64,000 nt of DNA from an uncultured Polaribacter sp. (GTDB lineage: Bacteria > Bacteroidota > Bacteroidia > Flavobacteriales > Flavobacteriaceae). Below, in pieces: positions 22,493 through 59,113 of the stretch (positions within the stretch are counted from its first letter, which is position 1; every line of letters begins with the position of its first letter). The notes under the pieces were generated by a model. It saw only the letters and a list, made by a program, of their open reading frames with translations. It did not search any database and was not told the DNA's origin. The stretch is taken from assembly GCA_913020555.1 (NCBI GenBank), contig CAJWAC010000001.1, forward strand, positions 1 through 64,000, given 5' to 3'. The position numbers were made by a program, and so were the translations under genes.

Positions 22493-23983
22493 ATGAATTA
22501 TTACTTAGGATTAGATATTGGTAGCTCTTCAATTAAAGCAGCTTTAGTAGAAATTTCTACAGGTAAAAGTTTAGGTGTAGTACAAGAACCAAAACAAGAG
22601 ATGTGTATGTTTGCTCAAAAAAATGGCTGGGCAGAACAAAAACCAAATGATTGGTGGTTGTATAGTTGCAATGCTATAAAGCGCTTAAAAAAACAATACA
22701 ACATAAGCAGAACTCAAATTAAAGGAATAGGAATTTCTTATCAAATGCATGGTTTAGTTTTGGTTGATAAAAAAGGAAATCCGTTAAGAAAAAGTATAAT
22801 TTGGTGCGATAGTAGAGCTGTAGAAATTGGTAACAAAGCTTTCACTAATATTGGTGAGGAAAAATGTACTTCGCAAATTTTAAACTCGCCAGCAAATTTT
22901 ACTGCTTCAAAACTAAAATGGGTAAAAGAAAATGAACCTGACATTTACAATCAAGCATACAAGTTTATGTTGCCTGGAGATTATATTGCTTACAGGTTTT
23001 CAAACAAAATAAACACCACTATTTCTGGTTTATCAGAAGGAATTTTTTGGGATTTTAAAAAGGATACAATTGCAGATTTTTTACTTGAAAATTACGATAT
23101 AGACAAAACACTTATCCCTGAAATTGTTGACACTTTTGGCATACAATCTTTAGTTGATGAAAAAGGAGAAAAAGAAAGTGAAATTGCTGCTGGAACTCCA
23201 ATTTATTATAGAGCAGGAGATCAACCAAACAATGCTTTATCTCTTAATGTTTTTAACCCTGGAGAAGTAGCGGCAACTGGTGGTACTTCTGGTGTTTTTT
23301 ATGCTGTTACAGATAATTTGTCTACTAAAGAAAGTTCAAGAGTAAACAATTTTGCTCATGTTAATTATAAAATAGGAGCGGCTAAAAGAATAGGTAAATT
23401 GTTATGTATTAATGGAGCTGGAATTCAATATCGATGGTTATTACATAATTTAGCAGTAAGCTCTTATGAAGAAATGAACAAATTAGCTTCTCAAATTCCA
23501 ATTGGTTCAGATGGAGTTTGCTTAATCCCTTTTGGCAATGGTGCAGAACGCATGCTTAATAATAAAGAAATTGGTACCCGAATTGTAAATATGAACCTCA
23601 ATAATCATCATAAAGGGCATATGTGCAGAGCATCTCTAGAGGGCATTGCTTTTTCTTTTGTTTATGGAATGGAAATTTTAAAATCTGATGGCATAAAAGC
23701 CAAAGTTATAAGAGCTGGGAATGATAATTTATTTCGTTCAGAAATTTTTGCAAATACTGTAGCTACATTAATTCAGCAAGAAATAGAGATCTATAATACT
23801 ACAGGAGCAATTGGTGCTGCAAGAGCGGCAAATCTTCATACTGGAAATTTTGAATCTTTTGGCAAAGCCATCATGGACAATGATCATGTAATGACTTTTA
23901 TGCCTTTTAAAGACCAAAAACCATATCAAGATGCTTACAATAACTGGAAAAAAGAACTTGAATTAATTTTAAATAGTAAATAA
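22493..23983 (+). CDS. xylB: Xylulokinase
   Basis: FGGY kinase: YLGLDIGSSSIKAALVE, GISYQMHGLVLVD, GTSGVFYAVTDN; adjacent to xylA. Confidence 0.93.
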   Translation: MNYYLGLDIGSSSIKAALVEISTGKSLGVVQEPKQEMCMFAQKNGWAEQKPNDWWLYSCNAIKRLKKQYNISRTQIKGIGISYQMHGLVLVDKKGNPLRKSIIWCDSRAVEIGNKAFTNIGEEKCTSQILNSPANFTASKLKWVKENEPDIYNQAYKFMLPGDYIAYRFSNKINTTISGLSEGIFWDFKKDTIADFLLENYDIDKTLIPEIVDTFGIQSLVDEKGEKESEIAAGTPIYYRAGDQPNNALSLNVFNPGEVAATGGTSGVFYAVTDNLSTKESSRVNNFAHVNYKIGAAKRIGKLLCINGAGIQYRWLLHNLAVSSYEEMNKLASQIPIGSDGVCLIPFGNGAERMLNNKEIGTRIVNMNLNNHHKGHMCRASLEGIAFSFVYGMEILKSDGIKAKVIRAGNDNLFRSEIFANTVATLIQQEIEIYNTTGAIGAARAANLHTGNFESFGKAIMDNDHVMTFMPFKDQKPYQDAYNNWKKELELILNSK

Positions 23984-23989
23984 TGTTTG

Positions 23990-24074
23990 GGCGTTACCTA
24001 AAAAGGTCGGGCTTTACGTTTTAATCTTTTTTTTCGTTCCTCACAAAAAGGATTTCCACTGCAATCCCTAACGC
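23990..24074 (+). repeat. Structured intergenic element (copy A), three-way-junction fold
   Basis: Outer stem GCGTT(A)/(T)AACGC 23991-23996 with 24069-24074; hairpin ACCT-aaaa-AGGT 23996-24007; hairpin AATCtTTTTT...AAAAAGGATT 24023-24054. Confidence 0.65.
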
Positions 24075-24125
24075 AAAAGCAGTACTAAAAACAATTACAC
24101 TGTTAAACAATTAAACATTACTAAA

Positions 24126-25442
24126 ATGGCAAATAAAGAATATTTTAAAGGAATTAATAAAATTCAATTTGAAGGAAAGGAGTCCAACAATCCACTAGCC
24201 TTTAAATACTATAATCCAGAACAAATTGTTGCTGGAAAAACAATGAAAGAATGGTTTAAATTTTCTATTGCCTATTGGCATACATTCTGCGGGCAAGGAT
24301 CAGATCCTTTTGGTCCAGGAACTCAAAATTTTGAGTGGGATAAAGCTTCAGATCCAATTCAAGCTGCTAAAGATAAAGCAGATGCAGCTTTTGAATTTAT
24401 TAATAAAATGGGCTTTGATTATTTCTGTTTTCATGATTTTGATTTAATTCAAGAAGCACCAACTTTTGCAGAATCTGAAACAAGATTAAACACAATTACA
24501 GATTATATTAAAGGAAAACAAGCAGAAAATAATGTAAAGTTATTATGGGGAACAGCAAACTGTTTTTCTAACCCTCGTTACATGAATGGCGCTTCTACAA
24601 ATCCTGATTTTAATGTTGTTGCAAGAGCAGGTGCACAAGTAAAATTAGCTTTAGATGCAACTATTAAGTTAGATGGTGAAAACTACGTTTTTTGGGGAGG
24701 TAGAGAAGGCTACATGTCTTTATTAAATACAGATATGGGACGTGAATTAGATCATATGGCACAATTTTTAACAATGGCAAGAGATTATGCAAGATCTCAG
24801 GGTTTTAAAGGAACTTTCTTCATTGAGCCAAAACCTATGGAACCAATGAAACATCAATATGATTTTGATTCTGCTACGGCTATTGGTTTCTTAAAAACCT
24901 ATGGTTTAGAGAAAGATTTTAAAATGAATATTGAAGTAAATCATGCAACTCTTGCACAACACACCATGCAACACGAATTAGCAGTTGCAGCAAAAGCAGG
25001 AATGCTAGGAAGCATTGATGCCAATAGAGGAGATTACCAAAATGGCTGGGATACAGATCAATTTCCAAACAACATTCAAGAAACTACAGAAGCAATGTTA
25101 GTGTTTTTAGCAGCTGGAGGTTTACAAGGTGGTGGTGTTAATTTTGACGCAAAAATTAGAAGAAACTCAACAGATATGGAAGATGTTTTTCATGCGCACA
25201 TTGGCGGTGCAGATACTTTTGCAAGAGCATTAATTACAGCTGATAAAATAATGACATCTTCTGCTTACAATTCTTTAAGAGAAAAAAGATATAGTTCTTT
25301 TGATACAGGAAAAGGAAAAGATTTTGAAATAGGGAAATTAGAACTGACAGACTTATATAATATTGCGCAAGAAAATGGAGAGCTAAAACTTCAGAGTGGT
25401 AAACAAGAGTTATTTGAAAATATTATAAATCAATACATATAA
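24126..25442 (+). CDS. xylA: Xylose isomerase
   Basis: [70 protein letters not shown]-like VNHATLA. Confidence 0.97.
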
Positions 25443-57952: not shown

Positions 57953-57989
57953 AAAAAACCTTCAGGCTATAAAGTCTTGAAGGTTTTTA
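57953..57989 (+). terminator. Rho-independent terminator
   Basis: aaaaaccttcaggct-ataaa-gtcttgaaggttttt after the GNAT gene. Confidence 0.85.
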
Positions 57990-58034
57990 TGTTTTATACT
58001 TCATAAAAACGGAAGTTTACGAAAAACTGGCAAA

Positions 58035-58137
58035 CTAGTTTAGCCCAGATTGAAGCATTTGTTTGAGCTCTTTTTTACCTTTTTCAGGTAAAAAAAGCGA
58101 GTGCTGAAAGCTGGAAATAGCTTCTAACACTAACTAG
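58035..58137 (-). repeat. Structured intergenic element (copy B, opposite orientation), three-way-junction fold
   Basis: Outer stem CTAGTT 58035-58040 / AACTAG 58132-58137; hairpin CTTTTTTACCT-ttttc-AGGTAAAAAAAG 58070-58097; hairpin AAGCT-ggaaat-AGCTT 58108-58123. Confidence 0.6.
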
Positions 58138-59113
58138 GTTGTAACATCCACTTAAAATTGAATTCTGTATCTGGTACTTTAATTCTTTCGGTTATTCTGT
58201 ACATTCTTTGTGGAAGCTTCATTAAATAATCTCTAGCTTTTTCGGCTTCGGGTGTTAAGTTGGTAATTTTATCAATTTCCCACATGTTATTTAATTTCTG
58301 TAAAATATCTACATAATCAAAACCTGTGTAAACTCCTATTCTTTGTGCTACTGTAGAGAAATCATCAAACAAGCTTCCTTTTTCTTGAAAAGATTCTCTT
58401 AAATGCATTGCTGGCATTACAATTTTATGTTTCATCATGTGTTGAAAAGCCAACATCATTTCACTAGCATCTATCTTAAAAATTTCTTTTACAAAATGAG
58501 CGTATGCTTGGTGATGACGCATTTCATCTCCCGCTATAATTTTAGACATTTTAGCCAACGCTTTGTGCCCTTTTTTACGTGCTATTTTGGCAACATTATT
58601 GTGCGAAATATAAGTTGCTAATTCTTGAAAAGTAGTATAAATAAAGTTTTTATATGGATCTGTAGAGGTTCCGATATCAAAACCATCTGCGATTAAATGT
58701 TGGGTAGAAATTTCTACCTCACGCATATTTACACGCCCAGATAAATACAAGTATTTATTTAAAACATCTCCATGTCTGTTTTCTTCGGCTGTCCAAGTTC
58801 TTACCCATTTTGCCCAACCATTATCTGGCTCTTGAGTAACGCCGTCTAAATCTAATAACCAAGATTCGTAAGTGGGCAAAGCTTCTTCTGTAATGGTATC
58901 TCCAACTAAAACTACCCAAAAATCATCGTGTAGTTCTTTAGAAATCTCTCTAATTTCTTCTACTTCTGAAATAAAAGAATCTTTTTGAGAGTTAGGCAAA
59001 AAATCTGTTGGTTGCCATATTTTTTCTGCTGGAATTAAATAGGTATCCATAAAGCTTTGCATCTTCTTTTCTAAAGTTAGCATTACTTCTTTTCTAATGT
59101 TTTTTATAGACAT
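58130..59113 (-). CDS. Acyl-ACP desaturase (fatty acid desaturase type 2)
   Basis: WTAEENRHGDVLNKYLYLSG; GDEMRHHQAYAHFV diiron motifs. Confidence 0.96.
   Translation of the reverse strand: MSIKNIRKEVMLTLEKKMQSFMDTYLIPAEKIWQPTDFLPNSQKDSFISEVEEIREISKELHDDFWVVLVGDTITEEALPTYESWLLDLDGVTQEPDNGWAKWVRTWTAEENRHGDVLNKYLYLSGRVNMREVEISTQHLIADGFDIGTSTDPYKNFIYTTFQELATYISHNNVAKIARKKGHKALAKMSKIIAGDEMRHHQAYAHFVKEIFKIDASEMMLAFQHMMKHKIVMPAMHLRESFQEKGSLFDDFSTVAQRIGVYTGFDYVDILQKLNNMWEIDKITNLTPEAEKARDYLMKLPQRMYRITERIKVPDTEFNFKWMLQPS

What the first reader, a model, noticed from the sequence alone, without database searches (positions are those of the whole stretch)
58035..58137. Second element with the same architecture in opposite orientation, overlapping the desaturase stop
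The reverse complement reads CTAGTTagtgttagAAGCTatttccAGCTTtcagcactCGCTTTTTTTACCTgaaaaAGGTAAAAAAGAGctcaaacaaatgcttcaatctgggctaAACTAG. The order is the same as element A: outer 5' arm, small hairpin, linker, A/T-rich long hairpin, then a linker containing CTKCAATC...CTAA and the outer 3' arm. Primary sequence is only partly shared (GCTTT, CTTTTTT, CAATC, CTAA), so the conserved property appears to be structure. Its outer arm runs into the acyl-ACP desaturase stop codon (58130-58132).
Basis: partly seen in the sequence, partly recalled or inferred. Interest (0 to 1): 0.7.

Follow-up and report, generated by a model that had tools for sequence, protein, structure and literature searches.

The report
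Mobile-looking Flavo-1 repeat after desaturase gene
The finding is one copy of Flavo-1, a known but unexplained repeated hairpin sequence of Bacteroidota bacteria that databases file as a small RNA; the evidence here suggests it is instead a small piece of mobile or self-copying DNA that settles behind stop codons at runs of T.

Summary
The element is real. It is a member of Rfam family RF01705 (Flavo-1): 46.5 bits against a cut-off of 42, on the + strand at 58038-58121. Two of B's described parts do not hold. The outer arms CTAGTT/AACTAG pair in none of 10 orthologous copies, and the small hairpin competes with a long-range helix (CCAG/CTGG) that covaries cleanly. B ends a few bases short of the desaturase stop rather than overlapping it. 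Flavo-1 is filed as an sRNA of unknown function. Several results favour a DNA-level mobile repeat: 0-63 copies within one genus, near-identical dispersed copies, patchy presence at orthologous sites, exchange of the inner hairpin at fixed addresses, and a 3' junction at A-runs whatever the direction of nearby genes. Compensatory changes and G-T versus A-C counts (17:2) show that the structured strand is Rfam's, which is antisense to the abutting gene in most type I copies. Separate terminators lie beyond B and at empty sites, so it is not the terminator. No mobilising enzyme was found: Y1 transposase and reverse transcriptase are each missing from some Flavo-1-rich genomes.

The parts
58030..58127 (+). 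Element B: Flavo-1 copy, end type I, inner type in1; approximate limits of the conserved unit (Rfam model match 58038-58121)
   Evidence: Rfam 46.5 bits; BLAST relatives in the same genome cover about 58016-58133; identity between near-identical copies ends 8-10 nt beyond the Rfam limits
58045..58048 (+). 5' side (CCAG) of the long-range covarying helix
   Evidence: coherent CCAG/CTGG to CCTG/CAGG switches in 11 orthologues; variable pair 89/90 Watson-Crick in type I
58111..58114 (+). 3' side (CTGG) of the long-range covarying helix
58055..58056 (+). 5' side (GC) of the inner covarying pairs, partner 58103-58104
   Evidence: pairs in1 and in2; position checked
58071..58095 (+). Long A/T hairpin TTTTTTACC / GGTAAAAAA with variable loop
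   Evidence: fold
58130..59113 (-).
   Evidence: ORF; orthologues in 51 of 60 congeners
57958..57992 (-). Separate terminator-like hairpin beyond the element (AAACCTTCAAG..CTGAAGGTTTTTTT in the desaturase sense)
   Evidence: found by script in the orthologue comparison; the simple consensus scan, which allows loops of 8 at most, did not list it
23991..24079 (-). Element A: Flavo-1 copy, end type II, between the genes at 22493-23983 and 24126-25442; outer arms 23991-23996 / 24069-24074
   Evidence: Rfam 57 bits at 24001-24079; arms checked

Best explanation
B is a copy of Flavo-1, best explained as a short (about 95 bp) non-autonomous mobile DNA repeat of Bacteroidota rather than an RNA gene or a 3'UTR device. 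Shown: the Rfam strand carries a covarying structure; copies are dispersed and vary from 0 to 63 between congeners; the 3' end of the Rfam strand abuts an A-run (a T-run in the sense of the type I host gene); occupancy and inner-hairpin type differ at orthologous sites. Inferred: an enzyme not yet identified recognises the hairpin structure of one strand and joins its 3' end to A-tracts. Such tracts lie, as T-runs, just behind stop codons and, as A-runs, just ahead of start codons. Insertions survive there because they break no gene, and copies are later overwritten by one another or decay. For the desaturase itself B is probably a neutral passenger in the 3'UTR.
For: Copy number 0-63 in one genus. 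Two pairs of copies at unlinked sites in closed genome G001 with 0 and 1 mismatch over 72-76 nt, identity ending 8-10 nt outside the core. Presence, decay and absence scattered over 29 orthologous desaturase loci. At an rlmL-like gene the element sits behind the stop codon and T-run in G001, G009 and G014, while G005 and G016 have the T-run without it and G013, the closest match, has no intact copy there. Inner type differs between species at the same address. A-run of 4 or more at the 3' junction in 60/72 type I and 63/108 type II copies in every gene arrangement, 7-22% on the 5' side. Structured strand antisense to the abutting gene in 56/72 type I copies, so the host mRNA does not carry the conserved structure. 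A published transcriptome found Flavo-1 hits indistinctly sense or antisense to transcripts, many in none (PMC9723704).
Against: No mobilising enzyme found and no autonomous type I copy. No clean empty/filled site pair was obtained. Several copies are inherited vertically at the same site, and gene conversion between old copies could explain the exchange of inner types. No target duplication was seen. A selected structure of one strand also fits an RNA.
Confidence: 0.58

Rival explanations
1. Flavo-1 is a family of small RNA genes, as Rfam files it: the Rfam strand is transcribed, runs antisense into the 3' end of the neighbouring gene and acts on it or in trans.
For: Compensatory changes and G-T over A-C on the Rfam strand, 17 to 2; conserved internal loops; antisense position behind stop codons in 56/72 type I copies.
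Against: G-T pairs are rare (17 of 1855 cells). Type II copies have no fixed orientation. Many copies decay or are missing in close relatives. The consensus scan gave no promoter reading into B from a fitting place except one weak sigma-70-type match (Bacteroidota promoters differ, so this says little). Published transcriptome found no consistent transcription.
Confidence: 0.15
2. Flavo-1 is an old, vertically inherited intergenic element that is kept alike by gene conversion and has little present mobility; it may protect or process mRNA 3' ends.
For: Same addresses in several species; inner type exchanged at fixed addresses; position between stop codon and terminator at the desaturase.
Confidence: 0.17
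3. Flavo-1 is a retroposed RNA, a bacterial counterpart of SINEs, primed on T-tracts by its A-rich 3' end.
For: A-run at the 3' end of the structured strand in all gene arrangements; structured strand is the would-be RNA.
Against: No reverse transcriptase domain (RVT_1) detected in G009, G013 and G004, all rich in copies. No 5'-truncated type I copies in G001: 13 left halves and 13 right halves, all paired.
Confidence: 0.05
4. The element is an intrinsic or bidirectional terminator.
For: Hairpin between convergent genes, just behind a stop codon.
Against: Hairpin followed by A's on both strands; separate terminators beyond it in 10 of 11 occupied and present in 10 of 13 empty loci.
Confidence: 0.03

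Closest known systems
Flavo-1 RNA, Rfam RF01705 (Weinberg et al. 2010, PMC2864571)
   Same: Same sequence and structure family by covariance model score; Bacteroidota only in the scans made here
   Different: Filed as an sRNA gene; the evidence here fits a mobile or converting DNA repeat better. B's inner variant (in1) is poorly caught by the model: several relatives in this genome score 25-38 bits, below the cut-off of 42
REP elements with REP-associated Y1 transposases (RAYT/TnpA-REP), including the Bacteroidetes subclass 2.6 (PMC6006769)
   Same: Short, structured, single-strand-specific, dispersed between genes in tens of copies; subclass 2.6 genes are flanked by atypical structures with copies elsewhere in the genome
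   Different: No GT[AG]G foot, about 95 bp rather than 20-40; no Y1_Tnp in copy-rich G001 and G008; only 1 of 20 scanned Y1 loci has a Flavo-1 nearby
MITEs and palindrome-associated (PATE) derivatives of IS200/IS605
   Same: Small, non-coding, defined ends, junction next to a short preferred sequence without visible duplication, as known for IS200/IS605
   Different: No parent element with the same ends was found
Intrinsic transcription terminators
   Same: Hairpin behind a stop codon
   Different: Followed by A's rather than T's on both strands; separate terminators coexist

Membership tests
Flavo-1 (RF01705) | Covariance model score at or above the curated cut-off | tested here: met
   46.5 bits against 42 for B, 57 for A
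Flavo-1 (RF01705) | Conserved paired structure with compensatory changes | tested here: met
Flavo-1 (RF01705) | Found in Bacteroidota | tested here: met
   All listed matches of a core-pattern scan of 84,980 genomes carry Bacteroidota names; copies in congeners and other families of the order
Flavo-1 (RF01705) | Expressed as a small RNA | not testable with these tools
   Published transcriptome inconclusive (PMC9723704)
REP/RAYT system | Y1 transposase gene in genomes with many copies | tested here: not met
   No PF01797 match at E<=0.001 in G001 (63 copies) and G008 (59); divergent members score near that limit, so this is not absolute
REP/RAYT system | Repeats flank the transposase gene | tested here: not met
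   1 of 20 Y1 loci has a Flavo-1 match within about 1.5 kb
REP/RAYT system | GT[AG]G tetranucleotide at the foot of the hairpin | tested here: not met
   Foot reads TTTAGCC (type I) or GCGTTA (type II)
MITE | Related autonomous element with the same ends | tested here: inconclusive
   None for type I ends in G001, G008, G009, G013 and G000 among pattern matches; type II ends not searched
MITE | Target site duplication | tested here: inconclusive
   A-run on the 3' side only, 7-22% on the 5' side; no exact empty site available
Retroposon | Reverse transcriptase in genomes with many copies | tested here: not met
   No RVT_1 match in G009, G013, G004
Intrinsic terminator | G+C hairpin followed by a T-tract | tested here: not met
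   Sequence

The most novel reading that the evidence does not exclude
Flavo-1, catalogued since 2010 as an RNA family and listed among the most abundant sRNA families (PMC9029176), is a new kind of mobile repeat: a modular element with interchangeable ends and inner hairpins, joined at its 3' end to A/T-tracts next to stop and start codons by an enzyme that is neither a Y1 transposase nor a reverse transcriptase.
Probability: 0.2. Interest if true: 0.75.

Novelty: new member of a known kind. Interest (0 to 1): 0.42.

Why it matters
Flavo-1 is annotated as an sRNA across Bacteroidota with no known role. If it is mobile DNA, those annotations are misleading, a mobilising enzyme is still to be found, and the T-tract behind stop codons is a natural safe landing site. 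The tests are simple: compare strains for gain and loss, and look for transcripts from the Rfam strand.

Tried and rejected
Terminator role: rejected. RAYT/Y1 mobilisation: not supported, with a caveat on sensitivity. Reverse transcriptase: not supported. Autonomous type I copy with an ORF in the loop: none in G001. Integron attC: arms are GTTA..TAAC, the reverse of attC (by inspection, attC consensus from memory). Phage or plasmid carriage: a core-pattern scan of viral contigs gave 25 hits, of which only three (L192, L201, L203) look like Flavo-1; no BLAST match in phage records and one weak partial match in plasmids. Clean empty site: not obtained; the L093 locus differs by a whole gene, L098 element 1 is kept or decayed in the relatives, L098 elements 2 and 3 carry another inner type in G013. 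A first pair-counting script mis-registered the right half of type I and gave misleading A-C counts; corrected. A model build without an alignment failed.

Full report
What is there. Rfam places the element in RF01705, Flavo-1, on the + strand at 58038-58121 with 46.5 bits (cut-off 42); the only other hit in the window at Rfam's cut-offs is element A at 24001-24079 on the minus strand with 57 bits. The same genome holds 17 hits at E<=1, and BLAST with B finds about 15 convincing relatives. Several of these score only 25-38 bits with Rfam because B belongs to an inner-hairpin variant ('in1', TTTGAGCTC...GCGAG) that the model fits poorly; the commoner variant ('in2') reads CATCC...GATATA.

Architecture. 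Copies come in two end types. Type I (B): TTTAGCCC[T/A]G ATTGAA ... GAAAG C[A/T]GGAAATAGCTTC. Type II (A): GCGTTA xGG ATTG ... AAAG CCx' GACC..GG TAACGCCC. Both end types occur with both inner types. Over 226 distinct copies, 97.5% of scored cells are Watson-Crick with many compensatory changes; with partners shuffled among copies the figure is 36-65% at seven of eight variable pairs (95% at one nearly invariant pair), and slid partners give 1-71%. These copies are related, and the detector required two of four pairs, so the percentages lean towards the structure. The coherent switch of CCAG/CTGG to CCTG/CAGG in all 11 orthologues at B's own locus does not depend on that.

Which strand. G-T pairs outnumber A-C mismatches 17 to 2 on the Rfam strand (cells are not all independent), so the constrained single strand appears to be Rfam's. 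For type I that strand is antisense to the gene whose stop it abuts in 56 of 72 copies. A 3'UTR structure of the host mRNA is therefore probably not what is conserved, although B itself folds somewhat better in the mRNA sense.

Not a terminator. The long hairpin has T's on its 5' side and A's on its 3' side on both strands. In 10 of 11 occupied desaturase loci a separate terminator lies beyond the element, and 10 of 13 empty loci have one too. In some other copies a terminator-like hairpin lies between stop and element (seen in the sequences).

Mobility. Congeners carry from 0 to 63 copies by Rfam (an underestimate where in1 copies prevail). In the closed genome G001 two pairs of copies at unlinked loci differ at 0 and 1 of 72-76 positions, and identity falls to background 8-10 nt beyond the core. 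At the desaturase stop (29 loci read) the element is intact in 11 species, decayed, diverged or a possible remnant in 5, and absent in 13, scattered over the gene tree. At an rlmL-like gene (name from reading the protein) it sits directly behind the stop and its T-run in G001 (in2), G009 and G014 (in1-like); G005 and G016 keep the T-run without the element, and G013, the closest match to G001, has no intact copy there. The inner type differs between species at the same address at the desaturase, the rlmL-like gene and two L098 sites. The 3' junction carries an A-run of 4 or more in 60/72 type I and 63/108 type II copies in every gene arrangement, against 7-22% on the 5' side. Type II copies lie behind stop codons or, often, 13-25 nt ahead of start codons, which is where such tracts occur. 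This junction is the simplest account of the orientation bias.

Limits. Retention with gene conversion explains the shared addresses about as well as re-insertion does. L106/L142 and the L098 copies in G033 show plain vertical descent. No enzyme was found: Y1_Tnp was not detected in G001 and G008, RVT_1 not in G009, G013 and G004, and no split type I copy with an ORF was seen in G001. TnpA-REP subclass 2.6, found mostly in Bacteroidetes and flanked by atypical structures (PMC6006769), remains the best lead, but only 1 of 20 Y1 loci scanned has a Flavo-1 neighbour.

Literature. Weinberg et al. 2010 list Flavo-1 as a likely RNA, not cis-regulatory (PMC2864571). The F. psychrophilum transcriptome found hits indistinctly sense or antisense to transcribed regions and many outside them, and drew no function (PMC9723704). 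Five held papers carry the name or accession; of these, four were opened and none gave a mechanism. Most subscription papers are not held, so an unheld explanation cannot be excluded.

Noticed in passing
L098:1597-1700; copies in G048, G033 and G013: A second dispersed palindromic repeat (TGTCATTTCGA...TCGAAATGACA) with dozens of copies; in G048 it is repeated together with a Flavo-1 half, and a related stretch sits inside a Flavo-1 loop in G013 and G048.
   Followed up: partly
L201:331-351 and L192:1883-1903 (viral contigs): Two of three Flavo-1-like copies in viral contigs lie near phage-like genes: L201 is a 9.5 kb contig that looks like a filamentous phage, L192 has a tyrosine recombinase about 2.4 kb away (gene names by eye).
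   Followed up: partly
L070:1429-2991 (G005): A Y1/RAYT-like domain runs in one open frame into what reads like coproporphyrinogen oxidase (520 aa); a Flavo-1 copy lies about 1.3 kb upstream.
   Followed up: partly
L090, L091 (G001, G009): The 2-oxoglutarate dehydrogenase E2-like gene (named by reading the protein) has a type II copy ahead of it and a type I copy behind it in two species.
   Followed up: partly
window 24001-24079: Element A lies between a xylulokinase-like and a xylose isomerase-like gene, 46 nt ahead of the second start codon (names by eye).
   Followed up: no
own genome, e.g. C56:7041, C30:7942, C13:23217, C13:12877: The B subfamily (in1) is under-detected by the Rfam model, so counts based on RF01705 understate Flavo-1 in this genus.
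   Followed up: partly
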